This document shows positions 6,856 through 51,471 of a DNA stretch of 64,000 nt, piece by piece. The number at the start of each line of letters is the position of its first letter. Position 1 is the stretch's first letter. The translations under genes and the position numbers were made by a program. The notes below the pieces were generated by a model, which had not been told where the DNA came from, searched no databases, and was given only the letters and a program-made list of their open reading frames with translations. Source of the stretch: a virus; IMG/VR virus record IMGVR_UViG_3300044655_002353, positions 26,029 through 90,028 of that record; one strand, 5' to 3'.

Positions 6856-6900
6856 TACGAACTTTTGATTATACTAACTGCTTAGCGGTGTAAATTGAAT

Positions 6901-6940
6901 AGTGGGTGAGTATGTTTTTTATACTCACCCACTGTTTATT
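6901..6940 (+). terminator. Terminator-like hairpin after gene 6196
   Basis: Perfect 13-bp stem AGTGGGTGAGTAT (6901-6913) / ATACTCACCCACT (6921-6933) with a T-rich loop, then GTTTATT. The downstream T tract is short, so termination may be partial. Confidence 0.7.
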
Positions 6941-6967
6941 CAAATAATCTTTTTTAAAGGAAATGAC

Positions 6968-24855: not shown

Positions 24856-25294
24856 AGATATCTTCAACATTGAACCAGGTTCAACTTATGATATGACTAC
24901 AAGTTCATCATCTTCATATGAAGATGATATGATTGCTGTTCCTCAACAAACGGTTGCCCAATCATATCAAGATGATGCAGAAGATATTGATATCAACAAT
25001 AAGATTGAGAGTATTTTTGAAGCTGCTATGGATGCTTATGAAAACCAAACAGCACTTACTGAAATAGTAGAACCTCGATATGCTGCAAGGAATGCAGAAG
25101 TGGCGGCACAGTACCTCAATACTGCGTTGAATGCAACGGCTCTTAAAGCAAGAACTAAAAATGACAAAAGAAAGACTGCTCCATTTATTCCATTTGGAAA
25201 TAATACAAATATTTCTGGGAACAACATCGTTGTCGCGGATAGAAATCAGATATTAGAAATGTTACGTAACAAAAACAAGGATTCGTTAGACTAA
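24821..25294 (+). CDS. 16: Small terminase subunit, gp16-like (probable)
   Basis: 157 residues (T4 gp16: 164). Acidic N-terminus, then two long helices (DINNKIESIFEAAMDAYENQ; AARNAEVAAQYLNTALNATA) like the central hairpin of gp16, a basic patch KARTKNDKRK, and GNNIVVADRNQILEMLRNKN, similar to the C-terminal segment of gp16 homologues. Small terminase recognises DNA and regulates the motor. It sits between gp4 and the large terminase, interrupted from the latter by 14 array genes; its stop is joined to the first of them by TAATG. Confidence 0.6.
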   Translation: MIKENLKKHPLEDIFNIEPGSTYDMTTSSSSSYEDDMIAVPQQTVAQSYQDDAEDIDINNKIESIFEAAMDAYENQTALTEIVEPRYAARNAEVAAQYLNTALNATALKARTKNDKRKTAPFIPFGNNTNISGNNIVVADRNQILEMLRNKNKDSLD

Positions 25295-25971
25295 TGAAAA
25301 TAAAAGAATTATTTGAAACATCAAGTACTCAACAAATGACTAATCCAGAAGTCCGTGAGTTAATTCAATACTGGGTTGATAAGGGTTGGCTAAAGGAAGG
25401 TTTTAACAATGGTGATTCTATACATGGTTTCCAAGTAGCTTCTGATGGTTCTGCTGAACGTAAACTTGATAAGCTAGAAATAGTGAATGAAATGCTAACT
25501 CCTGAAGGAACCTTTCCGTTCAAGTTATCTCGTGCTAAGTATGTCGCAGTTAGAGCAAATAATCTTTCTTCGTTCAAAAACTTTCCTGAACAAATTGAAC
25601 ATCGAATTTCTGGCAATCTTTTGTGTCTTGACATGTTAGCACCTAGCTTCCCTCATCTTACATCTTTAGAAGGATGTCCAAAATACTGTAGAGGTCACGC
25701 GAGATTATCACGAGCAAAAAATCTATCATATGCTAACGTTCATAAACATATCTTAGCTGCAGATGTGATTTCTATAAATGAAGAATATGTTGGCCCAATG
25801 TTAGGATTTCTAAAGATAGTCAATCTTAAAGAAATTAGACACTTATATTCAGAAAATGGAAAATTAGCTGAAGCAGCAGAGATTATCAATGAGTATCTAC
25901 CAAAAGGAGATTCTGTTGCATGCCAACGAAAACTAATTGAAAATGATTTAGACGAGTACGCGGAGTTTTAA
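25294..25971 (+). CDS. Array 2 gene 1: LRR-like type
   Basis: 225 residues; leader MKIKELFETSSTQQM (LFE). LRR-like units: LSSFKNFPEQIEHRISGNL, LTSLEGCPKYCRGHARLS, LSYANVHKHILAADVISI. Core GPMLGFLKIVNLKEI. Tail VACQRKLIENDLDEYAEF. Close in layout to 28044 and 34527. Coupled by TAATG to the small terminase stop. Confidence 0.75.
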   Translation: MKIKELFETSSTQQMTNPEVRELIQYWVDKGWLKEGFNNGDSIHGFQVASDGSAERKLDKLEIVNEMLTPEGTFPFKLSRAKYVAVRANNLSSFKNFPEQIEHRISGNLLCLDMLAPSFPHLTSLEGCPKYCRGHARLSRAKNLSYANVHKHILAADVISINEEYVGPMLGFLKIVNLKEIRHLYSENGKLAEAAEIINEYLPKGDSVACQRKLIENDLDEYAEF

Positions 25972-26642
25972 TGAAAATTAAAGAACTATTATCAGAAGAT
26001 ACTGTCAAAGAATGCACATTAGAATGCGTTTATTATTTTCCATTTACAGTTAACGGTTATGATAAACTTTCTAAAACATTGATTAGAAAAGCTGTATATA
26101 ATCTTTTAAAAGGATTTAAATACTCAATAGAGAATGTTAGCGAACACTCATTCAATATCAAAATAAAAAGTCCTGATAGTAATTTGCTAAAATCAAAAGC
26201 AAATCAATTCAAGTTTCATGATAAAGTAATGGAAGCTGTTTGTGATGCTATTGGTGAAAATTATATTGACGTTATCAATAATCAGTTATTTCAAGTATTT
26301 TGTAATATCTATAGTAACTATATCCCAACTTTTCCGGTTGAATGTGAGTTCTTTAAATTGACAATAACTCCAGATATCAAATTTACTGGAATACATAAAG
26401 TATTAGATTGTTTCCAATTACAATTAAATGACTTTCATAATTTCAAAGGTGGGGGCTTATTAAGTTTATTGAAACTTAACCCGTCAACTACAGTAAGACT
26501 TAGTATAAACGGAAAAATGTACCCGGAATTAGCTAGTGCTTGGAACATTATTCAAACATATTTATCATCAAAAAATCGTGATCTCGTTGCATGTCAACGA
26601 AAACTAATTGAAAAGGATTTAGACGAGTACGCAGAACTATGA
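25971..26642 (+). CDS. Array 2 gene 2: alpha/beta type
   Basis: 223 residues; leader MKIKELLSEDTV (LSE). The N-terminal domain LECVYYFPF, GFKYSIENVSEHSFNIKI, PDSNLLKSKANQF, MEAVCDAIG is a close relative of that in 33866 (PDSNWLKSEKAQF, MEAVCSEY), so these two share a recent ancestor about 8 kb apart. FTGIHKVLDCFQLQL, core GGLLSLLKLNPST. Tail VACQRKLIEKDLDEYAEL. Confidence 0.75.
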   Translation: MKIKELLSEDTVKECTLECVYYFPFTVNGYDKLSKTLIRKAVYNLLKGFKYSIENVSEHSFNIKIKSPDSNLLKSKANQFKFHDKVMEAVCDAIGENYIDVINNQLFQVFCNIYSNYIPTFPVECEFFKLTITPDIKFTGIHKVLDCFQLQLNDFHNFKGGGLLSLLKLNPSTTVRLSINGKMYPELASAWNIIQTYLSSKNRDLVACQRKLIEKDLDEYAEL

Positions 26643-27355
26643 AAATACGAGAACTACTTCAAGAAGCACCTAAAGTTTCAGAAGAAACAAAACGAGTTAG
26701 AGCCATTATTAAACAATGGCGAGAAGAAATAAAAGCTAATCCGCAATTTTCAGAATCTGCTTTTGGTCACTTCGAGCTAACCCCAGATAATCATCTTATT
26801 CATAAAGGACGAGCATTAGTAATTCGAAACTACATGTTAGATGAAAATGGAGAATTACCAATCAAAATCCATAGTTGTTATAAGTTATCAGTTGGAACTC
26901 CAAAAATTAAGTCATTCAAAAACTTTCCTAATGAAATACTTAGAGATTATAGAAATAAAGTAGGATTTGGAAGATTTGATTGGTCACTTAACTTTGGAGG
27001 GGTTTATTCAAATGATGAACGATATGATCATATCACTTCGTTAGAAGGAATTACTCCAGAAGTTCAGGGTGGTATTGATATGAGCATGCTAGAAAAAGTG
27101 AATTTTTCTAATGTTGATAAGTATATCAAAAGTTGTTCTGTTGTTGCTATTGACCGTGATTATGTTGGCCCATTACTAAGTTTTCTGAAAATACCAAACT
27201 TGCAAAAAATTAATGGTCCAACATTACAAAATGCTACAACTAATAAAGAAAAAGCTTGTGCTATTGTTACTGAACATTTAAAAGGTAAAAGAAACATCAT
27301 TGAGTGCCAACGAGAACTAATTGAAAAGGATTTAGACGAGTACGCAGAACTATGA
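26639..27355 (+). CDS. Array 2 gene 3: LRR-like type
   Basis: 238 residues; leader MKIRELLQEAPK (LQE-A). Units: IKSFKNFPNEILRDYRN, ITSLEGITPEVQGGIDMS, VNFSNVDKYIKSCSVV. Core GPLLSFLKIPNLQKI. Tail IECQRELIEKDLDEYAEL. Starts and ends with 4-nt ATGA overlaps. The DNA around its stop is nearly identical to that at 26600-26645 and 30590-30640. Confidence 0.75.
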   Translation: MKIRELLQEAPKVSEETKRVRAIIKQWREEIKANPQFSESAFGHFELTPDNHLIHKGRALVIRNYMLDENGELPIKIHSCYKLSVGTPKIKSFKNFPNEILRDYRNKVGFGRFDWSLNFGGVYSNDERYDHITSLEGITPEVQGGIDMSMLEKVNFSNVDKYIKSCSVVAIDRDYVGPLLSFLKIPNLQKINGPTLQNATTNKEKACAIVTEHLKGKRNIIECQRELIEKDLDEYAEL

Positions 27356-28044
27356 AAATTGGAGAGTTGTTAAATGAAGCAGTAAAGAAGCATCCGGAAG
27401 AATTTGCTATCATGGCTAAGATACATAAATGGCGAACCAAAATTGCTTCTGAAAAAGCTGCAACATATTCTTCATGGTATCCACCATTCGGAAAATATAA
27501 AATAGTTCCATATAAAGGTGGAGGTTATGGTGTAGAGCATTTGAGCGAAAATCTAAAACTTTATGAATGGATGTTTGAGAACGGAGAGCTTCCATTCAAG
27601 TTTATATCATGTATTTCACTTGATGTTTATGGTGTTAATGCAATGACAACGTTTAAAAACTTTCCAGATAAAGTTCTTAATAATAGTAATGGCACAATGC
27701 TGAACATATTCGGAGTTAATAGCACAATGAAAGGGCCTAATATTCATTCATTAGAAGGTGTGCCTCGACATATTAATGGTTCCGCAGATTTTTCTCATTT
27801 TCCGAAACTATCTTTTGCAAATGTTCATAAACATATCGATTATGTTGAAGGTGTTAAATTTCCATATCCGTATAAAGGTCCTATTCTTGGATTTCTAAAG
27901 ATAAATGGATTGAGTTCAGTTACAGACCATGGTGATAAGTGGCAACAGATACTAAATAAACATTTAGCAAGTTCTAAACGAGATGCCATTGCATGTCAAC
28001 GCGAATTGATTGAAAAAGATTTAGACGAGTACGCGGAGTTTTAA
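27352..28044 (+). CDS. Array 2 gene 4: LRR-like type
   Basis: 230 residues; leader MKIGELLNEAVKK (LNE-A). Units: MTTFKNFPDKVLNNSNG, IHSLEGVPRHINGSADFS, LSFANVHKHIDYVEGV. Core GPILGFLKINGLSSV. Tail IACQRELIEKDLDEYAEF ending in GCGGAG, which serves as ribosome site for the next gene (TAATG). Confidence 0.75.
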   Translation: MKIGELLNEAVKKHPEEFAIMAKIHKWRTKIASEKAATYSSWYPPFGKYKIVPYKGGGYGVEHLSENLKLYEWMFENGELPFKFISCISLDVYGVNAMTTFKNFPDKVLNNSNGTMLNIFGVNSTMKGPNIHSLEGVPRHINGSADFSHFPKLSFANVHKHIDYVEGVKFPYPYKGPILGFLKINGLSSVTDHGDKWQQILNKHLASSKRDAIACQRELIEKDLDEYAEF

Positions 28045-28709
28045 TGAAAATACAAGAACTATTTGAACAAACATCTAGTAATCAACAAATGTCTAAGGAT
28101 GAAGTACTTGCTATTATTGATGAATGGCGAAGTTGGCAAACTTTTCCGCATGATTACTATGACAAATTTGTAGTCGCTAAAGATGGAACAGTTTCATGCA
28201 ATATGCCAAAATTTCAAATTACGGAAAGAATGCTAACGCCAGAAGGAACTCTTCCATTCAAGATTACCCGAGCTAAATGTATTCACGTTTATACGTCTGC
28301 ACTTTCTTCATTCAAAAACTTTCCAGAGTATATTGAAACTCCTAAAAGCTCAAAGATTGATGCTCTAAAATTAGAGGGAGTAAATTTCCCTAAGCTTACT
28401 TCTTTAGAAAGTATTCCAAAGTATTCCAAAGGAGTATTGAATTTATGGGAAGCTCAAAATTTATCATTCGCTAATGTTCATAACCATATCTTAGAAGCTG
28501 ATAAGATTTATATTTCTGGGAATAAGCCAAGTCCGATATTAGGATTTTTGAAAATCAAAAACCTTAAAACTGTTTGGATATCAAGTGAAAGTATTGACGA
28601 TTTCGAAAGAGCAATTGATATTCTCAATGAATTCTTACCTAATGGCAACACCATTGCGTGCCAACGAAAACTAATTGAAAATGACTTAGACGAGTATGCG
28701 GAGTTTTAA
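28044..28709 (+). CDS. Array 2 gene 5: LRR-like type
   Basis: 221 residues; leader MKIQELFEQTSSNQQM (LFE). Units: LSSFKNFPEYIETPKSS, LTSLESIPKYSKGVLNL, LSFANVHNHILEADKIYI. Core SPILGFLKIKNLKTV. Tail IACQRKLIENDLDEYAEF. N-terminal region close to 25294 (SNQQM / STQQM), pointing to duplication of that gene. Confidence 0.75.
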   Translation: MKIQELFEQTSSNQQMSKDEVLAIIDEWRSWQTFPHDYYDKFVVAKDGTVSCNMPKFQITERMLTPEGTLPFKITRAKCIHVYTSALSSFKNFPEYIETPKSSKIDALKLEGVNFPKLTSLESIPKYSKGVLNLWEAQNLSFANVHNHILEADKIYISGNKPSPILGFLKIKNLKTVWISSESIDDFERAIDILNEFLPNGNTIACQRKLIENDLDEYAEF

Positions 28710-29350
28710 TGAAAATAAAAGAATTGTTTGAACAGGAAGAAGAACAAATACCATATAAAGTAGCAGAGCAATTGAGAATGCTTACTCAAGGTACTATCAA
28801 TCTAAATAAAATGGGCATATTATATGCTAATTCTAAATTAGACTTATCGCAATCTGATACGGCATTTGGAGCTTTCGCTGATAAAGTTGAAAATGGATAT
28901 GAACTAAAATATAAACTTGACGTAGTATTAGGTGATTTTGATATTGAAGATAGACAAATAGTTTCATTCAAAAACTTTCCAAACTCGGTTCATGGTGCTG
29001 TAAATTGTTATAAAAATAATATTACTTCACTTGAAGGTGCTCCTTATAATATAAGTGGTTCTTTAGATTTGATTGATAATCCTATCACTTCATTCAAAGA
29101 TATTCATAAACATATTCAGAGTTGCAGTAAGATTTATGTTCCTGTATCAGTTCAATCAAACTTATTAGGTGTATTGAAGATGAAAAATATTCCTTTACTT
29201 TCTACTGCTTCAACTGATAGATGGAAAGAAGGTTATAATACTTTATTAAAAGCTATATCTATCATAAATAGTTATCAAACAGCCAATGATTGGATTGCAT
29301 GTCAACGAAAACTAATTGAAAACGACCTGGACGAGTACGCAGAATTATGA
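28709..29350 (+). CDS. Array 2 gene 6: LRR-like type
   Basis: 213 residues; leader MKIKELFEQEEEQ (LFE). Clear LRR-like run: IVSFKNFPNSVHGAVNCYKN, ITSLEGAPYNISGSLDLIDN, ITSFKDIHKHIQSCSKI, each unit about 21-22 residues. Core SNLLGVLKMKNIPLL. Tail IACQRKLIENDLDEYAEL, joined by ATGA. Confidence 0.75.
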   Translation: MKIKELFEQEEEQIPYKVAEQLRMLTQGTINLNKMGILYANSKLDLSQSDTAFGAFADKVENGYELKYKLDVVLGDFDIEDRQIVSFKNFPNSVHGAVNCYKNNITSLEGAPYNISGSLDLIDNPITSFKDIHKHIQSCSKIYVPVSVQSNLLGVLKMKNIPLLSTASTDRWKEGYNTLLKAISIINSYQTANDWIACQRKLIENDLDEYAEL

Positions 29351-30003
29351 AAATATCAGAATTATTAAATGAAGCAACAAGTAATAGAACCGATACTTTT
29401 GAAATAAAGTTATCGTTTGAAACACATTTTGCACCAAAAGTAATTGCTATTCGAGATGCTTTGATTAAAGCTAATCTTACTGGCGTAAAAGTTAAACTTG
29501 TCGATAAACCATCATCAAGTAACCAAGTACGAATAACTTTGAACGGAAAACTTCCATTCAACAAAACTAATATTGAACATCAATTAGAAAGAGTTCGCGA
29601 AGTAGTCGAAAGCTTTAACAAAATCGATAAAAGCCCTTATAACGAAGGTTCATCATTTCCTATTGTCTTTATTGACAATATGCCAAATAGCCCAATTGAA
29701 TGGCCGGTTATCTATTTGAACTCAAATAGTAATACAGCTCTTTCATTAGCAGGTGTTGATAAACTTATTAAAGCAGATGAATTATTTAGAATTGAATATG
29801 CTAATATGATTAGCGATAGTGTTGTAGGGTTATTGAAAATCAAAGGCAAACTCATTCTAAATAATGCAGATTGGGGTAATAAGTTTAAAACTGTTGAATG
29901 GGTTAAAATTATTACTAGTTATAGAAAATCAGAAAATCAAGATATAGTTGCATGTCAACGTGAAATGATTGAACAAGACTTAGACGAATACGCGGAATTT
30001 TAA
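29347..30003 (+). CDS. Array 2 gene 7: alpha/beta type
   Basis: 218 residues; leader MKISELLNEATSN (LNE-A). N-terminal domain FEIKLSFETHFAPKVI, VKVKLVDKPSSSNQVRITL. Then LSLAGVDKLIKADELF, core DSVVGLLKIKGKLIL. Tail VACQREMIEQDLDEYAEF, with Met and Gln substitutions unique in the array. Confidence 0.75.
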   Translation: MKISELLNEATSNRTDTFEIKLSFETHFAPKVIAIRDALIKANLTGVKVKLVDKPSSSNQVRITLNGKLPFNKTNIEHQLERVREVVESFNKIDKSPYNEGSSFPIVFIDNMPNSPIEWPVIYLNSNSNTALSLAGVDKLIKADELFRIEYANMISDSVVGLLKIKGKLILNNADWGNKFKTVEWVKIITSYRKSENQDIVACQREMIEQDLDEYAEF

Positions 30004-30638
30004 TGAAAATAAAAGAACTATTTGAAACCTCAGTTAGAAAAGATTATTTTATAGACTTATGGCTGTCGTATAATGCTCTAACTACTACTTTAACAAAACT
30101 CAATGAAAATCCTAAAAAGATAACTGATGCTATTGACAAAAAAACCGGATTGAGTTCAATTATTCAAGTTGGTAAAGGTACATTTGATATTAGCCTTGAA
30201 GTTCCAGAACATCAGGTGAATGATTTTGCGAATTACATAGATGATGTCAATGCTGTTCTTAAAGCGTTTTTTGATATCACTGAAATTCGTGAAGATTCAG
30301 GGTCGCATATAGTTCATTTAACATTTGACAAACAGGTTCCTTCATTACCAATACCAATTGAGTTTCCGAATATCTTTATTCAGAACCTTAATAAAACTTC
30401 ATTATCTGGTATTCATAAAATAATAAAAGATTTTAGTTATTTAGAAATCAATAATTCTGAGAATATTACAGGTGGTGTTTTGGGTTTGATAAAGTTAGCA
30501 AAACATGGAGTAATAAAAATCAATACTCCAAATCCTGAATGGGCTAACATTGTTTTAAAATATTTAAACTCGGGTGATGTCATTGCATGTCAACGAAAAC
30601 TAATTGAAAAGGATTTAGACGAGTACGCAGAACTATGA
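30003..30638 (+). CDS. Array 2 gene 8: alpha/beta type
   Basis: 211 residues, the shortest member. Leader MKIKELFETSVRK (LFE). N-terminal domain with DAIDKKTGLSSIIQVGKGTF and a DFANYIDDVNAVLKAF helix matches the gene at 33211 (NEKTGTDSIILV; DAFDNYRENVLDVLNEF). Then LSGIHKIIKDFSYLEI, core GGVLGLIKLAKHG. Tail IACQRKLIEKDLDEYAEL. Confidence 0.75.
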   Translation: MKIKELFETSVRKDYFIDLWLSYNALTTTLTKLNENPKKITDAIDKKTGLSSIIQVGKGTFDISLEVPEHQVNDFANYIDDVNAVLKAFFDITEIREDSGSHIVHLTFDKQVPSLPIPIEFPNIFIQNLNKTSLSGIHKIIKDFSYLEINNSENITGGVLGLIKLAKHGVIKINTPNPEWANIVLKYLNSGDVIACQRKLIEKDLDEYAEL

Positions 30639-31561
30639 AAATATCAGAATTGTTAAATGAAGCATCTAAAGGTGCAGACTATTCAGCGGTCATTGACCAA
30701 TTAGAACAAACTCCAGAGTTTAAGGACTTCTCGAAGTACTTTGACTTGAACTCCACGAAAATACAAAGAAAGAATGGTTCTTTGCAAATAGTGACTAAAG
30801 ATACCTATCTAAAAGAACCACGAGAATACTTTGTCAATTATGCAGGTGATATCAAAGTCAAAAATTCTTACGCCTCTATTTGGGGTAAAGCGGGTTATGG
30901 TGCGGGTCCAGACGGTTCATTACAAATGTATCTGAACTGTTTAGATACAATACATACCCATTTTGTGAATTGGTTTGCAAAACGTCTAAAGAATGCTAAA
31001 GATGATGTGCGTAATCTTAGTCTTACTACGCTAAAAGGCAGAATTTATCCAAATAAGATTTCAAACTTCAATTGTTCTTACAATAATCTTACAACCTTAG
31101 AAGGAGCACCTGAACTTAATGCGGCGGGGGATTTCTCAGTAGGTGGGGATTTCTATTGTAACAACAATGAACTGACTTCGCCTTTAGTTGGTGGTCCTGA
31201 ACAATGTAGATTGTTTAATGCTGCTAATAATAAGCTAACATCTTTTGAAGGATTTCCAAAGCATGCTCAGTTTATTCAAGCGTATGGTAATCCAATCACT
31301 TCATTCTCTGACGTTCATAAGCATATTCCGAGGTGTCAAGGATTTACTTTACCGCCAGTCAAAACTGGGGTCTTAGCATTTTTCAAAGTAAAAGATTGTA
31401 CTTCAATTGCATTTACTATAAATGGTAGAAAAACAGAAGATGGAGAATTTGGTTTAGTTGCTCAAATTGTTTCTAAGCATTTATTCTCTAGTGAACGAAG
31501 TGCTATCAAATGTCAACGTGAACTAATTGAAAACGACTTGGATGATTATGCAGAGTTTTAG
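30635..31561 (+). CDS. Array 2 gene 9: LRR-like type, extended
   Basis: 308 residues; leader MKISELLNEASKG (LNE-A). The best LRR-like run in the window: ISNFNCSYNNLTTLEGAP, GDFYCNNNELTSPLVGGP, CRLFNAANNKLTSFEGFP, FIQAYGNPITSFSDVHKHIP. The N-x-L-T-S-L-x-G-x-P pattern with Asn ladders fits a short solenoid. Core TGVLAFFKVKDCTSI. Tail IKCQRELIENDLDDYAEF. Confidence 0.78.
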   Translation: MKISELLNEASKGADYSAVIDQLEQTPEFKDFSKYFDLNSTKIQRKNGSLQIVTKDTYLKEPREYFVNYAGDIKVKNSYASIWGKAGYGAGPDGSLQMYLNCLDTIHTHFVNWFAKRLKNAKDDVRNLSLTTLKGRIYPNKISNFNCSYNNLTTLEGAPELNAAGDFSVGGDFYCNNNELTSPLVGGPEQCRLFNAANNKLTSFEGFPKHAQFIQAYGNPITSFSDVHKHIPRCQGFTLPPVKTGVLAFFKVKDCTSIAFTINGRKTEDGEFGLVAQIVSKHLFSSERSAIKCQRELIENDLDDYAEF

Positions 31562-32273
31562 ACAATACTTATTAAAAGAACAGGCTAACAACGATTTCGA
31601 CTTTTGGCCGGAAGAAGATATTATCGACTGGATTACTAGAAATGGTCATCGAGTTCTAAAGAAGTATAACATTGAAGATTTAGACCCTGGCAACTTTGAA
31701 AATGCAAAGTATGATTATGGTATTGTAAATGCTACGGCTGTGTTATTATCTGGTGATGAAGAATGTTTGCCACGTATTAATGGTTCAACTCATCTTCGTT
31801 ATTTGCCATGTCAGTTTGGACAAATAGAAAGGAACTTCTTTATAGCAAATTGTAGTTTAGGTTCTTTGAAAGGATGTCCTAAAATCGTGGGTGGTCGTTT
31901 TAGCATTAGCAACAATCCAGAAATCACATCACTTGATTATTTTCCTGAAAGAGCTTCTTCATATATACTTCGTGGAACTGGTATTACTTCTTTGAGTGGC
32001 ATTCACAAAGTCATCAAAGAAATAAGACCTAATAGACAAGGTGATGGTGAAATTGTCGTTCCGCATACTTTGACTAATTCTATATTAGGCTTGCTAAAGA
32101 TACCAGGATTGAGAACTATTTCATATCCAGCAACTGAAAGAGCTAAATACTCTAATGAACTTCGCCAAGCAATTGGAATAGTCTATAACCATTTACAAAC
32201 AGACGAAAAAAATGCTATTGCCTGCCAACGAGAACTAATTGAAAATAATCTAGACGATTACGCGGAGTTTTAA
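31548..32273 (+). CDS. Array 2 gene 10: LRR-like type
   Basis: 241 residues from ATG 31548; the upstream in-frame ATG at 31527 lies inside the previous gene's tail codons and is rejected. Leader MQSFRQYLLKEQA (LKE). Units: LGSLKGCPKIVGGRFSISN, ITSLDYFPERASSYILRG, ITSLSGIHKVIKEI. Core NSILGLLKIPGLRTI. Tail IACQRELIENNLDDYAEF. First MQ-type leader in array 2. Confidence 0.75.
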   Translation: MQSFRQYLLKEQANNDFDFWPEEDIIDWITRNGHRVLKKYNIEDLDPGNFENAKYDYGIVNATAVLLSGDEECLPRINGSTHLRYLPCQFGQIERNFFIANCSLGSLKGCPKIVGGRFSISNNPEITSLDYFPERASSYILRGTGITSLSGIHKVIKEIRPNRQGDGEIVVPHTLTNSILGLLKIPGLRTISYPATERAKYSNELRQAIGIVYNHLQTDEKNAIACQRELIENNLDDYAEF

Positions 32274-33211
32274 TGAAACTAAATGAACTATTTCCATTAC
32301 TAAAAGAAGCCGGTGTTTCGATACCTGCTGTTAAAGATTTGCCGCCTATTGACCCGGTTGATTTAGCTGATACTCTAAATAAAGTCAAACAATCAAACGA
32401 ATATAAAGAAATACTTTCAAAAACATTTGATATCAGTTCTGCTATAAAACTAAAAAACGGAACTTTAACATTCAAGTTGAAAAATGGAACTATGGATTAT
32501 TCGATTTATTCTAATGGACAGATAAGAGCTCAGGCAGCACATGCTGATAGAGCCACTAAGATGAATTCGCCTATTCCCGTTCCTAATCTATATGTTCGTT
32601 ATATCAACTGTTTAAAAAAGCTGAAAGACATAGCTGAAAAAAAATTAGCTAAGAAAGAAGAAAATAAAACAATTATATTATCTGGAGAAATGGGCCCTGA
32701 CTTAACTCAAATTGAATTCCCAAAAGATACAATTTATCTCAATGTTCTTAAATCTTCAATTCGTTCCCTAAAAGGTTGTCCGCCAACAATTGAACATTTG
32801 ATGATAAGTGACAATGAAAATCTAATATCTTTAGAAGGTTGTCCATCTAAATTAACAAATTTAGCTATATGGGATAATAAAAACTTATCATCATTAGAAC
32901 ATATTGCTTCTGATATTGATGGTAATCTACAAATTTATCGTAATGCAAAAATTACTTCTTTTGACAATTTAGATAAGTTAGTAAAAAGAATAGGCATCAT
33001 GTTACAATTTGACCCAACTATTAAAAGTGGTGTTCTTTCTATTTTGAAAATTAAAGGATTAGAACAAGGTGTTCGACAAACAAAACCACCACAAGAAGTT
33101 GATCTTATCTTAGGTAAAATTCTAACTAAACATATATTTGCAGGGCGCAACAGGATTGCGTGCCAACGTGATCTAATTGAAAACGACCTAGACGAGTACG
33201 CGGAGTTTTAA
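32273..33211 (+). CDS. Array 2 gene 11: LRR-like type, longest member
   Basis: 312 residues; leader MKLNELFPLLKEAGV with LKE-A at residues 10-13, slightly later than in other members. Units: IRSLKGCPPTIEHLMISD, LISLEGCPSKLTNLAIWD, LSSLEHIASDIDGNLQIY, ITSFDNLDKLVKRIG. Core SGVLSILKIKGLEQG. Tail IACQRDLIENDLDEYAEF (Asp in place of Glu/Lys). Confidence 0.75.
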   Translation: MKLNELFPLLKEAGVSIPAVKDLPPIDPVDLADTLNKVKQSNEYKEILSKTFDISSAIKLKNGTLTFKLKNGTMDYSIYSNGQIRAQAAHADRATKMNSPIPVPNLYVRYINCLKKLKDIAEKKLAKKEENKTIILSGEMGPDLTQIEFPKDTIYLNVLKSSIRSLKGCPPTIEHLMISDNENLISLEGCPSKLTNLAIWDNKNLSSLEHIASDIDGNLQIYRNAKITSFDNLDKLVKRIGIMLQFDPTIKSGVLSILKIKGLEQGVRQTKPPQEVDLILGKILTKHIFAGRNRIACQRDLIENDLDEYAEF

Positions 33212-33879
33212 TGAAAGTAAAAGAACTATTTGAACACGAAGCTATTCCAAAGTTAAAACAAAATCATATGATAGAGCTTACATTAGAATTTAGCGGATTG
33301 ACTGACTTATGTAAGAAGATGAAAGCAAATTTGCAACAGTTCAAAAAACTTATCAATGAAAAGACTGGAACTGATAGTATTATATTAGTTAGTACTATTT
33401 CATTTTCTATTAAATTATTGATTGAAGATAAAAATGTTGATGCTTTTGATAATTATCGTGAAAATGTTTTAGACGTATTGAATGAATTTGCAGGTGATTC
33501 TTCTAACTATCGAGAAAATCATGAAGACCACCATGTTAATCTATTCTTTTCACATGAGGTTCCTAAACTTTCAATTCCAATTTCATATGATACTGTTTAT
33601 GTAAATGTAGAAAATAAATCTTCATTATCCGGAATTGATAAAATTATATCTTCTTTTAGAAACTTATATATTCGTAATTGTGAAAACGTTACCGGAAAGG
33701 CATTAGGCATTATTAGGTTAGCTAAGAAAGGTAAAGCAATCAACTTATCAACATCAGATTATCATGAATTGCATTGGATGTATGTTATCAATAAGCATTT
33801 GAATCCTGAACGTCAAAATGTTGTAGCTTGTCAACGAGAACTAATTGAACGTGATTTAGACGAATATGCAGAATTTTAA
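33211..33879 (+). CDS. Array 2 gene 12: alpha/beta type
   Basis: 222 residues; leader MKVKELFEHEAIP (LFE). Domain paralogous to 30003: IELTLEFSGLTDLCKKM, LINEKTGTDSIILV. Then LSGIDKIISSFRNLYI, core GKALGIIRLAKKGKA. Tail VACQRELIERDLDEYAEF. The two relatives are separated by three LRR-type genes, so the order has been shuffled. Confidence 0.75.
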   Translation: MKVKELFEHEAIPKLKQNHMIELTLEFSGLTDLCKKMKANLQQFKKLINEKTGTDSIILVSTISFSIKLLIEDKNVDAFDNYRENVLDVLNEFAGDSSNYRENHEDHHVNLFFSHEVPKLSIPISYDTVYVNVENKSSLSGIDKIISSFRNLYIRNCENVTGKALGIIRLAKKGKAINLSTSDYHELHWMYVINKHLNPERQNVVACQRELIERDLDEYAEF

Positions 33880-34540
33880 ACAATACTTGCAAGAAGGTGA
33901 AACTCAGAATTCAGTTTATCTTGAATGTTGTTATTACTTTCCAGGAAATCCTATAACAGACATAACTTCAGCAAAAGTTCGTGGTATAGTCTCACCAGTG
34001 TTGAAAGGCTTTAAGTTTTCACTTCAAGATGTAAGCACTGAAGGTTTTGTTGTAGTTATTATAGACCCTGATAGTAATTGGTTGAAATCTGAAAAAGCTC
34101 AGTTTGATTTGCATGGTAAGATTATGGAAGCAGTTTGCTCTGAGTATAAAATGAACTTTGCGCATGTCATTAATCATCATAAGTTTTCGGCTAATTGTAA
34201 TATAGGATTGAATAGATTACTTCCATTTCAAGTAGTTTGTCATTTATTGTCTATCAATGTTCAAGTTGATACAGTTTTTACAAATATCAAAAAGCTAGTA
34301 AAATGTGATGCGATTCACATTTATCAAATGGAGTATTTTAATGGAGGGTTATTAGGATTATTACAAATACCTCATCCAACTCAAGTTTGGTTTTCTTCTA
34401 ATAGTATTAGATTAGCAAAATACGATAAATTAAATGAGGCCATTCGAATTGTCAGAACACATTTAGATGGTGATAGAAATGTTGTAGCTTGTCAACGAGA
34501 ACTAATTGAAAAGGATTTAGATGAATATGCAGAGCTTTAA
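33866..34540 (+). CDS. Array 2 gene 13: alpha/beta type
   Basis: 224 residues; leader MQNFKQYLQEGET (LQE). Domain paralogous to 25971 (LECCYYFPG; PDSNWLKSEKAQF; MEAVCSEY), but with the other leader class: MQ-type here, MKI-type there. That leader swap on a related body is direct evidence of recombination between leader and body. Core GGLLGLLQIPHPTQV. Tail VACQRELIEKDLDEYAEL. Confidence 0.76.
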   Translation: MQNFKQYLQEGETQNSVYLECCYYFPGNPITDITSAKVRGIVSPVLKGFKFSLQDVSTEGFVVVIIDPDSNWLKSEKAQFDLHGKIMEAVCSEYKMNFAHVINHHKFSANCNIGLNRLLPFQVVCHLLSINVQVDTVFTNIKKLVKCDAIHIYQMEYFNGGLLGLLQIPHPTQVWFSSNSIRLAKYDKLNEAIRIVRTHLDGDRNVVACQRELIEKDLDEYAEL

Positions 34541-35228
34541 ACAATACTTACAAGAAGACACGGCTTCAAATAGCGAATACGTTCAACGTATTCGAGACCT
34601 ATTAAATGATTGGGCAAGTCAAGAACTTATACCGAATGACCCAAAGAAAAACTCTTTGCACGGTTTCAAAATATCTGCATCTGGGATAGTTGATTGTCAG
34701 TTAGGAACTCTTATAATTTATGATGAAATGTTAGATGCTAATGGTGAATTCCCATTCAAAATCCGAAATGCAAAATATATGATTTTGGAGCGTTTAGAAA
34801 AATTAAAATCATTCAAAAACTTTCCTGAAAAATTAGTATGTAAATCAGATTATAGGGATGTTTTTATAACATATCATCTTTTTAAGTATCGTAAAATTAC
34901 ATCTTTTGAGAATTTTCCAAAATATTGTCCTAATGGAGAAATACAACTAGAGGCATTTGTAAATGCTTCTTTTTCAAATATTCATAAACATATTTTGGAT
35001 GCAGAAACAATAAGAATAAATCCTAATTATGTTGGACCTATTTTATCATTTTTAAAGATTCCAACTTTAACAGATGTATATGCATTTACGGGGGATGTAA
35101 ATGACGAAAGTGAATCATGTAAAGAAGCTCTTAGTATTCTAAATAAACATTTAAATGGTAATAGAGACTTTATTGCATGTCAACGAGAACTAATTGAAAA
35201 GGATTTAGATGAATATGCTGAATTATAA
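34527..35228 (+). CDS. Array 2 gene 14 (last): LRR-like type
   Basis: 233 residues from ATG 34527; ATG 34521 would only add Met-Asn. Leader MQSFKQYLQEDTA (LQE). Units: LKSFKNFPEKLVCKSDYRD, ITSFENFPKYCPNGEIQLE, ASFSNIHKHILDAETIRI. Core GPILSFLKIPTLTDV. Tail IACQRELIEKDLDEYAEL. Body close to 25294 despite the different leader class. A late promoter and hairpin follow, before the large terminase. Confidence 0.76.
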   Translation: MQSFKQYLQEDTASNSEYVQRIRDLLNDWASQELIPNDPKKNSLHGFKISASGIVDCQLGTLIIYDEMLDANGEFPFKIRNAKYMILERLEKLKSFKNFPEKLVCKSDYRDVFITYHLFKYRKITSFENFPKYCPNGEIQLEAFVNASFSNIHKHILDAETIRINPNYVGPILSFLKIPTLTDVYAFTGDVNDESESCKEALSILNKHLNGNRDFIACQRELIEKDLDEYAEL

Positions 35229-42063: not shown

Positions 42064-44925
42064 ATGTCTAATCCTCAAGAAAATAATTCATCTTATATTG
42101 GAGTCTGTAACGACTACCGAAGTGATAAGATTATTGCTTGGGAACGGACCTCACTGGGAGGTCCTAGGACCTCCCAGACATATACTCCTCCTCGCTATTT
42201 CTTTGTTGAAGACGAAGATGGACCATACAATTCAATGTATGGTACTCCTCTAAAAAAGATAGTTTTTGACACCAAAGAAGAATACGAAGCAGCTAAGAAC
42301 ATCTTCAAACTAAAGTTTGAAAGTGATATCAATCCTGTTCAACGTATTATGATGGATGAGTATTATGGCCGTCCTGTTCCTAAAATTCACTTTGCGTTTT
42401 TTGACATTGAATCAGAAGTAATGAAGGGAAGAGGGTTCTCGAAACCTTCTGACCCATTTGCTCCAATCAATGCAATAACCATTTACAAACAATGGCTTAA
42501 TAAGTTTGTATGTATTGCGGTTCCACCATCATTTATTCCAAATCTTGAAACTACTTGGACTAATGGTTTAAACAAGTTTCCAATCAAAGTCGAAGATTAT
42601 GATTACGACCCAATTGATTGCGACTTAATTCTCGTTGAATCTGAAGTAGAATTGTTGAGCATCTTTCTCGATGAATTGGAAGATATTGATTTTATTTCAG
42701 GATGGCATTCTGAGTTTTATGACTTGCCATATATCTACAAACGAATCGAACAGCTATTAGGTGATAAGGCTACTTTACGATTATGTTTTCCTGGTGCGGG
42801 AAGACCTCGTGAAAAATTGGTTGAACGATATGGCAAAGAAGAACTAACTGTCCAGTTACAAGGTAGGACTCACCTTGACTATATGGACATGTTCAAGAAG
42901 TTTACATTTGAAGGACGAGAAAGTTATACTTTGGAAGCAATTGCATCTGAAGAAGTAGGTGCTTCTAAACTAAAGCATGAAGGTTTAGAAAAGCTATATC
43001 GATTAGACTTTGTTAAGTTCATCCATTACAACATTATCGACGTTGTTCTTATTAAGTTGCTCAATGAAAAGTTTAGATTCGTTGAACTTGTCAATCAAAT
43101 GGCACATGAGAATACTGTTCCATTTGAAGCTATACTTGGTACAACTAAGTATGTTGATATGGGTATCTCCAACTTTGCGATTAACAACATTGGGGTTAGG
43201 GTAAAAGATAAAGATTCCTATGTAGTAACAGGTAAAGTCGAAGGTGCTATCGTTATGACACCTCGAATAGGATTACATGAATGGGTTGGTTCAGTTGATA
43301 TCAACTCGCTATATCCTTCAACTATTCGTAGTCTTAATATGTCACCTGAAAAGGTTATAGGTCAATTTGATACTGACGAAACGATTGAAAGATTGTTTAT
43401 TGAGAATCCTGAATTTGCTGAAGCTGTAGAAAAAGCAGAACGAGCAGGTATTGATACTATTTCTTTTATCAAATCAACTGCTAAAGAAGCGGATTGGAAA
43501 GGTATTCGTGATGAAGATAATCATCCGCATACTTTACATTTTGTAAATGGTGAAGAATCTCTAACTCTAACTGGTAAAGAATGGAAAGAAGTTCTGCTTG
43601 AACAAAAATGGGCTATCTCTGCTTATGGAACGGTATTCGACCAATCTTCAGGTAAGGGTATTGTGCCTATGCTTTTGGAATCTTGGTATTCTGAACGTAA
43701 AAAGATGCAAGCAGAGAAAAAGAAATGGACTAAGATTCTCAAAGAACTTGAAGGAAAAGATTCTTCTGACCTAAACGAAGCAAAGATTCAAGAAGCTCAA
43801 TATGAACTGCTTCAGCTAACTAAGAAAATCTCACTCAATTCACTTTATGGAGCATTATTAGCGAAAGGTTTCCGCTGGGCATTCAGAGAATGGTTAGGAG
43901 CTTCAACTACATATTGTGGTCGAGCTATTACTTCGCATATGATTTGTTTTGCAGGTCATGCATTGACTAATAACAATGTCATTCTAACTAAATCATATGA
44001 AGTTGAAGGTGGAGATAAGGCTAGAATATCAAATGTCTATACAACTGATAATGAAGCTATTATCTATGGAGATACTGATAGTGCGTATTTCAAAACCTTT
44101 GCATCAACTAAAGATGAAGCAGTAGAAATAGCTGATGCTATCGCTGATGAAATCAATGATAGCTTTCCTCAGTTTATGAGAGATTCTTTCTGTTGTCAGC
44201 CAGGATTCGATACTTTGATTGCAGCAGGTCGAGAAGTAGTTGCAGAACGTGGATTATTTCAAGCTCGTAAAAAGTATATGTTGAAAGTTGTCGATTTAGA
44301 TGGCTTTGCTACTAATAAGATGAAAGCTATGGGTTCGGAGATTAAGAAATCTGATACTCCAAAAATCATTCAAAAGTTTCTAAAGAAAACTGTTGATATG
44401 ATTCTAAATGGTGATTCTTATGATGCTCTTGTAGAATTTGTGAATAACGAAAGAAGCAGATTGTTCAAAGGTGATATTGATTCCGAAGATAAACTTCTTT
44501 TTGGTATTTCTAAAGCAGCAAACAATCTTGAACTAATGACTCGTGCATATGACGCTGAACTTGCAGGAAAACCGATGTTGAATGCGAAGGGTAAAGGTAA
44601 GCTGACAATCCCTGGTCATTGTCGTGCGGCAATCAACTTCAATAAACTATCAACATTGTTTGAGGGTGCTGACGGGTTCCAGATAAGCTCTGGTGATAAA
44701 GTCAAAATCTTTGAATTGAGACCTAATGACCATAACTTTACAAGTATTGCCATTCCTGCTGAAGCTGAAGAGTTTCCATTTTGGCTTGAAGAAGAATTTG
44801 AAATCGATTTCAAAAAGACTGAAGAAAAATTGATTACTGCTAAACTTGAAGGTATCTTTTCAGCTTTAGGAAAAGAAGTTCCAACACCATTTAGTGCTCG
44901 TGTCAATAAACTTATGGTCTTTTAA
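42064..44925 (+). CDS. 43: Family B DNA polymerase, gp43-like
   Basis: 953 residues (T4: 898). Replicative polymerase with proofreading. Exo I FFDIESE with Asp114 and Glu116; polymerase motif A DINSLYPS from Asp412; motif B KKISLNSLYG (587-596); motif C YGDTDS (668-673) with catalytic Asp670 and Asp672. All key residues are present. C-terminal ARVNKLMVF resembles the clamp-binding tail of gp43. Ten bases after dsbA, upstream of the clamp gene. Confidence 0.97.
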   Translation: MSNPQENNSSYIGVCNDYRSDKIIAWERTSLGGPRTSQTYTPPRYFFVEDEDGPYNSMYGTPLKKIVFDTKEEYEAAKNIFKLKFESDINPVQRIMMDEYYGRPVPKIHFAFFDIESEVMKGRGFSKPSDPFAPINAITIYKQWLNKFVCIAVPPSFIPNLETTWTNGLNKFPIKVEDYDYDPIDCDLILVESEVELLSIFLDELEDIDFISGWHSEFYDLPYIYKRIEQLLGDKATLRLCFPGAGRPREKLVERYGKEELTVQLQGRTHLDYMDMFKKFTFEGRESYTLEAIASEEVGASKLKHEGLEKLYRLDFVKFIHYNIIDVVLIKLLNEKFRFVELVNQMAHENTVPFEAILGTTKYVDMGISNFAINNIGVRVKDKDSYVVTGKVEGAIVMTPRIGLHEWVGSVDINSLYPSTIRSLNMSPEKVIGQFDTDETIERLFIENPEFAEAVEKAERAGIDTISFIKSTAKEADWKGIRDEDNHPHTLHFVNGEESLTLTGKEWKEVLLEQKWAISAYGTVFDQSSGKGIVPMLLESWYSERKKMQAEKKKWTKILKELEGKDSSDLNEAKIQEAQYELLQLTKKISLNSLYGALLAKGFRWAFREWLGASTTYCGRAITSHMICFAGHALTNNNVILTKSYEVEGGDKARISNVYTTDNEAIIYGDTDSAYFKTFASTKDEAVEIADAIADEINDSFPQFMRDSFCCQPGFDTLIAAGREVVAERGLFQARKKYMLKVVDLDGFATNKMKAMGSEIKKSDTPKIIQKFLKKTVDMILNGDSYDALVEFVNNERSRLFKGDIDSEDKLLFGISKAANNLELMTRAYDAELAGKPMLNAKGKGKLTIPGHCRAAINFNKLSTLFEGADGFQISSGDKVKIFELRPNDHNFTSIAIPAEAEEFPFWLEEEFEIDFKKTEEKLITAKLEGIFSALGKEVPTPFSARVNKLMVF

Positions 44926-49134: not shown

Positions 49135-49162
49135 TTTACAAATCTAGAAAACCGTTTATAAT
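49135..49162 (+). promoter_or_regulatory. Sigma70-type promoter for the 49197-50434 unit
   Basis: TTTACA (49135-49140), 16-bp spacer, TATAAT (49157-49162). Confidence 0.7.
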
Positions 49163-49196: not shown

Positions 49197-49406
49197 ATGG
49201 CTGATACGACCTATTATGTAATACATAGAAGAACTGGACATACTGAGATTTTTCATAATGCTTCTTTAGTTTCATCTTTTATGTTGGTGCGAAGATTATC
49301 ATCAGGATTATTTGTAAAAGTTGATGAAAAAGGCGAACGAATAGTTGATGTATCAAAATGTTCTGATAAAACGTCAGAACTTGAACAAATTTTAGAAGAG
49401 GCATAA
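49197..49406 (+). CDS. Tandem paralogue A, unknown
   Basis: 69 residues, MADTTYYVIHRRTGHTEIFH. Aligns end to end with the next gene without gaps, including a shared C-terminus E-L-x-Q-I-L-x-E-A. A small alpha/beta fold with one Cys. Sigma70-type promoter suggests early or middle expression. Function unknown. Confidence 0.6.
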   Translation: MADTTYYVIHRRTGHTEIFHNASLVSSFMLVRRLSSGLFVKVDEKGERIVDVSKCSDKTSELEQILEEA

Positions 49407-49410
49407 GAAA

Positions 49411-49620
49411 ATGGCTGACACGACCTATTATGTAATACACAAAAGAACTGGTAACACTCAGCTTTTTTATGATGCTTCGTCTGTTGTAACATTTATGTGG
49501 GGCCAAAAAATTGCTTCTTATTATTTTCTAAAGGCTGATGATAAAGGACCAAGAGTGGTTGATATATCACAATGGTCTGGAGATTTATCAGAACTTGCAC
49601 AAATTTTGAAAGAGGCATAA
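49411..49620 (+). CDS. Tandem paralogue B, unknown
   Basis: 69 residues, MADTTYYVIHKRTGNTQLFY; same length as paralogue A, 4 nt after its stop. The first 9 codons are nearly identical at DNA level, the middle has diverged (SSVVTFMWGQKIASYYFLK). A recent tandem duplication directly upstream of thg1. Confidence 0.6.
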   Translation: MADTTYYVIHKRTGNTQLFYDASSVVTFMWGQKIASYYFLKADDKGPRVVDISQWSGDLSELAQILKEA

Positions 49621-49624
49621 GACG

Positions 49625-50434
49625 ATGGCAAGTATAGATTTCCAATCATTGGGTGACGAACAGAAGAAGTTAGAGTTGATTTCAGCTGGAGCTCGATTAG
49701 TTTCTGGAGTGCCAGTGATTGCTCGTCTTGACGGGCGAGCTTTTCATACTCTGACTAAAGATGCGAATAAGCCGTTTGACTGTCGTATTGTTGGTTCAAT
49801 GGAGCATACTGCTAAAACATTGGTTGAAGCTTTTCAACCAGATGTTGGTTATACTCAAAGCGATGAGATAACTTTGGTCTGGGAAAGTTTGGATATGTTT
49901 GATGGTCGAATCCAAAAGATATGTTCAACTCTTGCGTCATATGCATCGGTAATTTTTGCAAAAGAAATGGACCAATATCGGTTTCCAATTCCACGTGGCA
50001 TTGTTCCAACATTTGATTGTCGTGTATGGCATGTTCCATCATTAAGTTCTGCGGTTGATAATTTGACATGGCGGGAATGGGATGCTTCTAAGAACAGTGT
50101 AAGCATGTGTGCTCATACAAAGTTTACGAATGTCCAACTTAAAGGGGTTCCAACTAAACGTCGGGTTCAAATGCTATACGAAGTAGGGTTCGATTGGAAC
50201 GGATTGGCTGATAACTTCAAACGCGGTTCTTACTGGCAACGTAAGACGTTCATGGAGTTCTTGACTGAAGAAGAATGCGAAAGAATTCCGGCACAACACA
50301 GACCTGCTGGAGCAATATCTCGGAGTAGAGTGGTAAGAATGAACTTTCCACGGTTAGTTCAAGTATCAAATGCAGTTGGGATGATATTTAGAGCCGAAGA
50401 ACCACAATTTAGAGATGTAATAGGAATTGAATGA
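49625..50434 (+). CDS. thg1: Thg1-like 3'-5' nucleotidyltransferase (tRNA-His guanylyltransferase family)
   Basis: 269 residues. ARLDGRAFHTLT with metal-binding Asp36 and GYTQSDEITLVW with Asp80 are the Thg1 catalytic motifs; KRGSYWQRKT and a C-terminal ISRSRVVRMNFP follow as in the family. Thg1 adds G to the 5' end of tRNA-His; the bacterial and phage Thg1-like proteins repair 5' ends of truncated tRNAs by 3'-5' addition. No tRNA gene was seen in this window, so a host-tRNA repair role against nuclease defence is possible. Followed by a candidate structured RNA. Confidence 0.85.
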   Translation: MASIDFQSLGDEQKKLELISAGARLVSGVPVIARLDGRAFHTLTKDANKPFDCRIVGSMEHTAKTLVEAFQPDVGYTQSDEITLVWESLDMFDGRIQKICSTLASYASVIFAKEMDQYRFPIPRGIVPTFDCRVWHVPSLSSAVDNLTWREWDASKNSVSMCAHTKFTNVQLKGVPTKRRVQMLYEVGFDWNGLADNFKRGSYWQRKTFMEFLTEEECERIPAQHRPAGAISRSRVVRMNFPRLVQVSNAVGMIFRAEEPQFRDVIGIE

Positions 50435-50453: not shown

Positions 50454-50461
50454 GATAAATA
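50454..50461 (+). promoter_or_regulatory. Late promoter upstream of the structured RNA
   Basis: GATAAATA, 20 nt after the thg1 stop and directly before the first stem of the candidate RNA; the next ATG is 283 bp downstream. Confidence 0.5.
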
Positions 50462-50743
50462 ATAGACCAGCTCCATAAAAGCTGGTGTGACCACCAAAGG
50501 CGGCTACCTGATTAGCCATCTACTCTAATGTATTATGCATAGAGTGGTCTTTCAATGGCCTTGAAGCACGGGAACATTCTACAGTTCCATATTCATGTGA
50601 TTCAAGGTAACGGTGCGGAAAAGCCAAAAAACCGAAGGCTTGCACCCCGTTGGGCAACATAGAGAATGAGATTCACGTTGATTTATCTGATGAGAATCTT
50701 TATGGAGTGCTTGATGCGAACTAAACAAATAGAGAGGGAGTAA
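50462..50743 (+). ncRNA. Candidate structured RNA / long folded 5' leader
   Basis: No reading frame of note, but dense pairing. ACCAGCT/AGCTGGT (50466-50472, 50480-50486). GACCAC (50489-50494) with GTGGTC (50544-50549) closes a junction holding GGCTA/TAGCC and ACTCTA(A)TG/CATAGAGT. TTCAA/TTGAA near 50551-50565. GGAAC/GTTCC near 50571-50588. A long nested stem AACGG...CCGTT enclosing GTGC/GCAC and AAGCC/GGCTT (about 50609-50652). AGATTC/GAATCT near 50670-50699. Base composition is less AT-rich than flanking spacers. It matches no tRNA, tmRNA or RNase P signature I could find. Either an independent RNA or a regulatory leader of the transglycosylase gene. Confidence 0.55.
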
Positions 50744-51418
50744 ATGAAACTCAACACACTAACCTTAGTGGCAACACTGGGGATGGCATTGCTATCTCCG
50801 TCTGTTTCTGCGAAAGTGCACCATGTTTACGACCGTCACCAGAAAGGTCATCATCACAATAACTTTTCTAATGACACTGATAATGTATCAGAAAAAGTTG
50901 TAAGAGTAAGGCATGGAAGGGGTGAAAGTGGAAAGTCATCGCATAAGAATGAACCGCTTTCTGTAAATCAAAAGAACATCATTACTTTAGCTTATAATAC
51001 GGCAAAGGAAGATGGACTTAGACAACCAGAAGTTCTAGCTGGAATCATTTTCCAGGAAAGCAAAGCCGGTGAGGCGGCTAAGTTTAGAACCTCAAAACAT
51101 AAGAAGGCTTGTGACCAAACTGTTGGCTTAGGGCAAATCAAAACAGGAACAGCGAAAGCAGTTCTAAAAAGATTTCCTGAATTGAAGAAAAAGTTTGGAA
51201 TCCCAGATAGCCAGATAACAAATGCTCTTGCACATAACGACAAGTTCAATGTGGCAGTGGCAAGTAAGTATCTTGTTTATCTGAGTACAATGTATCGAGG
51301 AGATGCATTGATTGCAAGTTATAACATGGGTGAAGGTGGCGTTAAAAAGCTACGTAATCCATCAAAACTTCATTATGTTAGAATGGTCAATAAACATATT
51401 GACACATTAAATCTATAA
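50744..51418 (+). CDS. Exported lytic transglycosylase (SLT, GH23-like)
   Basis: 224 residues. Signal peptide to SVSA, a His/Asp-rich spacer (HHVYDRHQKGHHH), then the SLT domain: catalytic Glu105 in IIFQESKAGE, GLGQIK (128-133), ASYNMGEGGV and HYVRMVNKHI. Cleaves the glycan strand of peptidoglycan. Being exported by signal peptide it may act in lysis or wall remodelling, without needing a tail. AGAGAGGGAG ribosome site. Expressed behind the folded leader. Confidence 0.8.
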   Translation: MKLNTLTLVATLGMALLSPSVSAKVHHVYDRHQKGHHHNNFSNDTDNVSEKVVRVRHGRGESGKSSHKNEPLSVNQKNIITLAYNTAKEDGLRQPEVLAGIIFQESKAGEAAKFRTSKHKKACDQTVGLGQIKTGTAKAVLKRFPELKKKFGIPDSQITNALAHNDKFNVAVASKYLVYLSTMYRGDALIASYNMGEGGVKKLRNPSKLHYVRMVNKHIDTLNL

Positions 51419-51425
51419 CGACAGA

Positions 51426-51471
51426 ACATGTGAATGGGTGTTATAATGTACCTATTCACATGTCACTTTTT
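51426..51471 (+). promoter_or_regulatory. Extended -10 promoter in the loop of a 14-bp hairpin before primase
   Basis: ACATGTGAATGGGT (51426-51439) pairs with ACCTATTCACATGT (51450-51463), one G-U pair. The loop contains TGTTATAAT (TATAAT 51442-51447). A TTTTT run follows at 51467-51471 and the primase ATG is at 51482. Same plan as at 48437. Confidence 0.65.

What the first reader, a model, noticed from the sequence alone, without database searches (positions are those of the whole stretch)
50462..50743. Densely folded non-coding stretch between thg1 and the transglycosylase gene
Seen: at least seven complementary stems in 280 nt, including a long-range junction (GACCAC/GTGGTC) around two hairpins and a nested stem near 50609-50652, directly after a late-promoter core. 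It matches no RNA class I recognise. Inference: an independent phage RNA, or a long regulatory leader controlling the cell-wall enzyme. Adjacency to Thg1, an enzyme acting on RNA 5' ends, raises the possibility that it is a Thg1 substrate.
Basis: partly seen in the sequence, partly recalled or inferred. Interest (0 to 1): 0.75.

Follow-up and report, generated by a model that had tools for sequence, protein, structure and literature searches.

The report
Conserved folded leader before phage lysin
A 280-base stretch in front of a phage cell-wall-cutting enzyme gene is a real folded RNA that related phages keep even though much of its sequence has changed, and it most likely acts as a built-in control region for when or how much of that enzyme is made.

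Summary
The observation largely holds. Window 50466-50743 lies between thg1 and an exported lytic-transglycosylase (SLT) gene. It folds better than all 200 dinucleotide shuffles (z -3.18; opposite strand -1.40) and matches no Rfam family. I found it upstream of the same SLT gene in two further phage lineages (SLT identity 85% and 53%). A covariance model built without the most distant lineage finds it at E=3e-10. Across lineages, 11 base pairs of the 3' core change on both sides, 90 of 92 cells stay paired, and the 5' hairpin is rebuilt in different sequence. The core is more conserved than the flanking genes. Indels exclude a coding reading. All copies start at a T4-type late-promoter octamer and run without a terminator into the SLT Shine-Dalgarno, so the simplest reading is a structured late-mRNA leader acting in cis on the SLT gene. 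The Thg1 link is not supported: thg1 is missing at this locus in one lineage, separated from the RNA by a terminator-like hairpin in another, and 239 kb from the SLT gene in a fourth phage. The GACCAC/GTGGTC junction is not conserved. What the leader does is inferred, and a processed independent RNA is not excluded.

The parts
50454..50461 (+). T4-type late-promoter octamer GATAAATA (TATAAATA in relatives L011 and L013)
   Evidence: Sequence; exact TATAAATA at the homologous place in L011:5699 and L013:5720. Not experimentally tested; such octamers are not over-represented in the window as a whole.
50466..50486 (+). Hairpin H1 at the predicted 5' end: ACCAGCU/AGCUGGU
   Evidence: Six or seven pairs kept in all lineages; five pairs changed on both sides between window and L013, one between window and L011.
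50497..50518 (+). Hairpin C, AAGGCGGCUACCURAUUAGCCA: near-identical in window and L013, missing in L010-L012
   Evidence: exact pattern found in viral contigs only in these phages.
50520..50547 (+). Hairpin D (CUACUCU/AGAGUGG); L011 GUAGACAU/AUGUCUAC, L013 GAAGGGC/GUCUUUC
   Evidence: MFE folds; same position, different sequence.
50558..50608 (+). Hairpin A: long stem with a 3' 6-8 nt bulge
   Evidence: Six pairs with changes on both sides.
50609..50651 (+). Hairpin B with conserved 11-nt loop AAAAMMCCGAA (50626-50636)
   Evidence: Five pairs with changes on both sides; two of these belong to the AAC/GUU extension that competes with helix E.
50649..50715 (+). Helix E (50649-50656/50708-50715) and F (50658-50665/50697-50704) enclosing the conserved UGAUUUAUCUGWUGAGA (50679-50695)
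   Evidence: E is in the unconstrained MFE of this sub-domain in all four sequences; consistent one-sided changes in E and a two-sided change in F; motif pattern found only in these phages.
50732..50746 (+). Shine-Dalgarno GAGAGGGAG and ATG of the SLT gene
   Evidence: Sequence; conserved in all lineages.
50744..51418 (+). SLT lytic transglycosylase with N-terminal signal sequence, the gene under the leader
   Evidence: PF01464 E=3.4e-7; active-site Glu of QES and the GLGQ and YN motifs invariant.
51426..51463 (+). Intrinsic-terminator-like hairpin closing the transcription unit
   Evidence: 16-bp stem with T-rich tail; same place in L011.
49625..50434 (+). thg1, neighbouring gene, apparently not part of the unit
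   Evidence: PF04446 E=6.1e-28; linkage to the RNA not conserved.

Best explanation
The stretch is the structured 5' leader of the late mRNA for a phage-coded exported lytic transglycosylase. Transcription starts at the T4-type late octamer within a few bases of hairpin H1. The RNA folds into H1, (C), D, A, B and E/F, leaves a short single-stranded stretch with the Shine-Dalgarno, and continues through the SLT gene to a terminator. Shown here by comparison: the RNA fold, selection on it, the + strand as the acting strand, the non-coding nature and the linkage to the SLT gene. Inferred: late expression and cis action. Most likely the leader sets the amount or timing of the wall-cutting enzyme, by an RNA-binding protein or ligand recognising the invariant loops (AAAAMMCCGAA, UGAUUUAUCUGWUGAGA) and/or by shielding the mRNA from decay at its 5' end.
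For: Fold z -3.18 on the + strand against -1.40 on the - strand; z -2.7 and -2.5 in the two relatives. A model built from window, L011 and L012 only finds L013 at E=2.8e-10 in 200 kb. Eleven core pairs changed on both sides, 90 of 92 cells paired, slid controls at most 41 of 84, and none of 5000 permutations of L013 letters reach the paired count. G-U intermediates (A-U, G-U, G-C at one pair) place the RNA on the + strand. The plain MAFFT alignment of the whole leader, not guided by structure, gives alifold z -3.6, 0 of 200. Core identity exceeds the flanking genes (91.6% against 76-85%; 73% against 62-69%). Same position before SLT in all lineages, terminator-like hairpin after SLT. Indels of 2 and 6 nt, plus a 1-nt deletion in L012, break every frame.
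Against: Only three independent lineages. The variable helices were aligned by hand, with the register anchored by identical blocks. The number of two-sided changes alone is not outside the permutation control (360 of 5000 reach 11); the paired count is. The MAFFT alignment of the core alone is weak (z -1.7) because it misplaces L013. No consistent masking of the Shine-Dalgarno: predicted largely free in L011 and L012, mostly paired in the window, mixed in L013. A fourth relative (L037) has SLT, primase and helicase in the same order but no such RNA. No expression data; late promoter assigned by sequence only.
Confidence: 0.6

Rival explanations
1. A separate non-coding RNA that acts in trans, released by processing from the SLT transcript; the SLT gene is only its neighbour.
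For: Several strictly conserved stretches are in loops and unpaired parts, the Shine-Dalgarno is not consistently masked, and a relative has SLT without the RNA.
Against: No terminator-like site at the end of the RNA on the + strand; conservation runs unbroken into the SLT Shine-Dalgarno with constant spacing; never found away from SLT.
Confidence: 0.22
2. A ligand-sensing riboswitch that uses the mutually exclusive pairings of GUU 50649-50651 (with AAC of hairpin B, or with helix E).
For: Both pairings are kept in L013 by base changes; the alternative state lies 0.6-3.7 kcal/mol above the best one.
Against: No terminator or consistent Shine-Dalgarno mask for a switch to act on; the energy gap differs between lineages; no known aptamer in Rfam.
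Confidence: 0.1
3. A substrate or partner RNA of Thg1.
For: Adjacent to thg1 in the window and in L013.
Against: RNA without thg1 at the locus in L010-L012; terminator-like hairpin between them in L013; thg1 far from SLT and without such an RNA in the 368-kb relative; no tRNA-like fold.
Confidence: 0.03
4. A T4 gene e-type block in which early read-through RNA hides the start site and late RNA lacks the block.
For: Late promoter and wall-degrading enzyme, as in T4 (PMC3014915).
Against: Here the late promoter lies in front of the whole structure, so late RNA carries all of it; no conserved Shine-Dalgarno mask.
Confidence: 0.05

Closest known systems
T4 gene e (lysozyme), soc, 49 and I-TevI leaders (PMC3014915, PMC2988022)
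   Same: Late promoter with TATAAATA and RNA structure in front of a late gene, for e a wall-degrading enzyme.
   Different: In T4 a hairpin hides the start site on early RNA and the late promoter sits inside it, so late RNA is free of it. Here the late promoter precedes the whole leader of about 280 nt and the Shine-Dalgarno is not consistently hidden.
T4 gene 43 and gene 32 mRNA operators (PMC3014915)
   Same: Conserved hairpin loop or structured element some distance upstream of the start, a site for a phage protein.
   Different: Those are one hairpin or a pseudoknot; this leader has five or six hairpins, and no binding protein is known.
manA and wcaG motifs of cyanophages (PMC2864571; RF01745, RF01761)
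   Same: Covarying structured RNAs in potential 5' UTRs of T4-like phage genes.
   Different: Different families: no Rfam hit here, and a lysis-type gene instead of metabolic genes.
GOLLD and ROOL ornate RNAs (PMC12286853)
   Same: Large structured RNAs; phage linkage of some is recalled from general knowledge, not tested.
   Different: Not detected by Rfam here; this RNA is joined to an mRNA.

Membership tests
Any Rfam 15 RNA family | Score at or above the family's gathering cut-off | tested here: not met
   0 matches in the whole window; at permissive threshold only a chance XIST repeat hit, minus strand, E=2.5.
Covarying structured RNA (as a kind) | Compensatory changes in homologues | tested here: met
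   11 core pairs changed on both sides, 90 of 92 cells paired, H1 rebuilt in new sequence.
Phage 5' mRNA leader element | Promoter upstream, no terminator before the gene, conserved linkage to one gene | tested here: met
   (promoter by sequence only).
T4 gene e-type inhibitory leader | Late promoter inside the structure so late RNA lacks it | tested here: not met
   Octamer at 50454-50461, before the first hairpin at 50466, same order in all lineages.
T4 gene e-type inhibitory leader | Shine-Dalgarno or AUG sequestered in a helix | tested here: inconclusive
   Predicted paired in the window, largely free in L011 and L012, mixed in L013.
Riboswitch | Ligand-dependent change of an expression platform | not testable with these tools
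   Mutually exclusive B/E pairings exist but no ligand or platform is known.
Thg1 substrate (tRNA-like RNA) | tRNA-like fold and linkage to thg1 | tested here: not met
Protein-coding stretch | Reading frame kept between relatives | tested here: not met
   2-nt and 6-nt indels between window and L011 and a 1-nt deletion in L012.
Intrinsic terminator or attenuator | GC-rich hairpin plus U run on the + strand between the RNA and SLT | tested here: not met
   None found in the window leader or the L013 leader; only a weak site within hairpin A in L011.

The most novel reading that the evidence does not exclude
A new class of phage RNA whose invariant loops sense a phage protein or small molecule and thereby gate the export-competent wall-cutting enzyme, or that is cut out and acts in trans on the host late in infection.
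Probability: 0.25. Interest if true: 0.75.

Novelty: new variant of a known kind. Interest (0 to 1): 0.5.

Why it matters
It is a covariation-supported structured RNA outside Rfam, tied to a lysis-type enzyme in a group of large phages with no close isolate in the phage collection searched. If it controls that enzyme, it puts lysis control at the level of a long late-mRNA leader, opposite in layout to the classic T4 lysozyme case where late RNA escapes the structure. The conserved loops give defined targets for probing and reporter tests.

Tried and rejected
Hidden small protein: an ATG ORF at 50555 with an A-AAA-AAC slippery site would give 56 aa (family and tblastn searches negative); rejected because relatives differ by indels not divisible by three and L011 lacks the ATG. 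In L011 a TTG frame runs into SLT, but a 1-nt deletion in L012 breaks it. Hammerhead-like CUGAUGAG at 50687-50694: L013 has CUGUUGAG and there is no GAAAC partner; judged by eye, rejected. Broader RNA pattern: six extra hits, all chance on reading; the genome-contig hit L049 lies in GC-rich, apparently coding DNA and is taken as chance. A weak model hit in G005 (E=0.88) shows no resemblance. Searches in isolate phages by DNA and by SLT protein found no homologue. Whole-window z-score scans timed out twice. MAFFT misplaces L013 in hairpin B, so the core alignment was made by hand.

Full report
What is there. The region lies between thg1 (49625-50434, PF04446) and a gene for an SLT-type lytic transglycosylase with an N-terminal signal sequence (50744-51418, PF01464). 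The catalytic Glu in QES and the GLGQ and YN motifs are invariant between relatives. The record is a 90-kb virus contig with a phage DNA polymerase, DnaB-type helicase, primase and terminase. The best polymerase matches are large phages at about 34% identity, so there is no close isolate in that collection.

The observation. As RNA the + strand folds with z -3.18, better than all of 200 shuffles; the - strand gives -1.40. In a sample of 151 windows it ranks fourth, so energy alone would not prove function. No Rfam family and no tRNA.

Relatives. IMG/VR holds the same phage in other contigs (100% identical, L002-L009), a second lineage (L010-L012; SLT 85% over the full alignment) and a third (L013; SLT 53%). 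All three carry the RNA directly before SLT. A covariance model built without L013 finds L013 with 45 bits, E=2.8e-10. Pattern scans with different pieces find no further home in viral contigs, and a scan of about 85,000 prokaryote genomes gives one chance hit. A fourth, more distant phage (L037) has SLT, primase and helicase in the same order, but only a 118-nt gap before SLT without this RNA.

Structure and covariation. From the late octamer to the start codon the order is: H1 (50466-50486), C (50497-50518), D (50520-50547), A (50558-50608), B (50609-50651), E/F (50649-50715), then about 28 nt with the Shine-Dalgarno. In the hand alignment of A and B, whose register is fixed by identical blocks (CCUU, AAGGU, CCAAAA, CCGAAGG, CCC), 90 of 92 cells are standard pairs and 11 pairs change on both sides; sliding the partners by 1-3 columns leaves at most 41 of 84 paired. 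Permuting the L013 letters never reaches the paired count in 5000 trials, though 360 reach the number of two-sided changes, so the paired count is the stronger statistic. H1 keeps its stem with five two-sided changes against L013. A plain MAFFT alignment of the whole leader, not guided by structure, still gives alifold z -3.6. Intermediates such as A-U, G-U, G-C at one pair fit the + strand and would be mismatches on the other. Helix E is part of the free MFE of the 3' domain in all four sequences; an alternative extension of B that uses the same GUU lies 0.6-3.7 kcal/mol higher.

Constraint and coding. The 3' core is 91.6% identical between window and L011, where the SLT, primase and helicase genes are 85, 76 and 80%; against L013 it is 73% where the genes are 62-69%. 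Indels of 2, 6 and 1 nt exclude a conserved reading frame.

Transcription unit. The octamer GATAAATA in the window corresponds to exact TATAAATA in L011 and L013. There is no terminator between the RNA and SLT in the window or in L013, and a terminator-like hairpin after SLT in the window and in L011. The unit thus looks like late promoter, leader, SLT, terminator. That it is late is inferred from the octamer only; octamers of this kind are not over-represented in the window.

Thg1. L010-L012 carry the RNA without thg1 in their partial contigs; in L011 a different ORF stands in the thg1 position. L013 has a terminator-like hairpin between thg1 and the RNA. In the 368-kb relative thg1 is at 50 kb and SLT near 290 kb, with another ORF immediately after thg1. 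Adjacency in the window is therefore no evidence for a functional link.

Mechanism. Most likely a cis-acting leader of the late SLT mRNA. T4 supplies the precedent that phages use RNA structure before lysozyme and other late genes (PMC3014915; PMC2988022), but the layout differs: in T4 the late promoter removes the structure from late RNA, here late RNA carries all of it and the Shine-Dalgarno is not consistently hidden. The invariant loops AAAAMMCCGAA and UGAUUUAUCUGWUGAGA, and the C hairpin shared by window and L013, suggest a bound partner; a 5'-terminal hairpin may also slow decay. These last steps are inference. A processed trans-acting RNA remains possible.

Verdict. A real, selected, structured RNA outside Rfam, in a narrow phage group, best read as a long late leader of a wall-cutting enzyme. 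Interest 0.5.

Noticed in passing
13358-21623 and 24280-35228: Runs of about 25 head-to-tail ORFs of roughly 160-310 aa; the one tested has no PHROG match. Looks like a large array of related genes, but relatedness was not tested.
   Followed up: no
49197-49406 and 49411-49620: Two related 69-aa ORFs (both beginning MADTTYYVIH) in tandem just before thg1, behind a sigma-70-like promoter at 49135-49162.
   Followed up: no
about 6700-6981 and 42094-42375: Windows with stronger folding than the finding (z about -5.6 and -5.5); the second lies at the start of the DNA polymerase gene.
   Followed up: no
L011 5449-5682: In the second lineage a different ORF of about 77 aa stands where thg1 is in the window.
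   Followed up: partly
50507-50512 and 50649-50654; L013 homologues: Loop of hairpin C (CCUGAU; L013 CCUAAU) is complementary to GUUGGG (L013 AUUAGG) in helix E, a possible kissing contact; seen by eye, lineage L011 lacks hairpin C.
   Followed up: no
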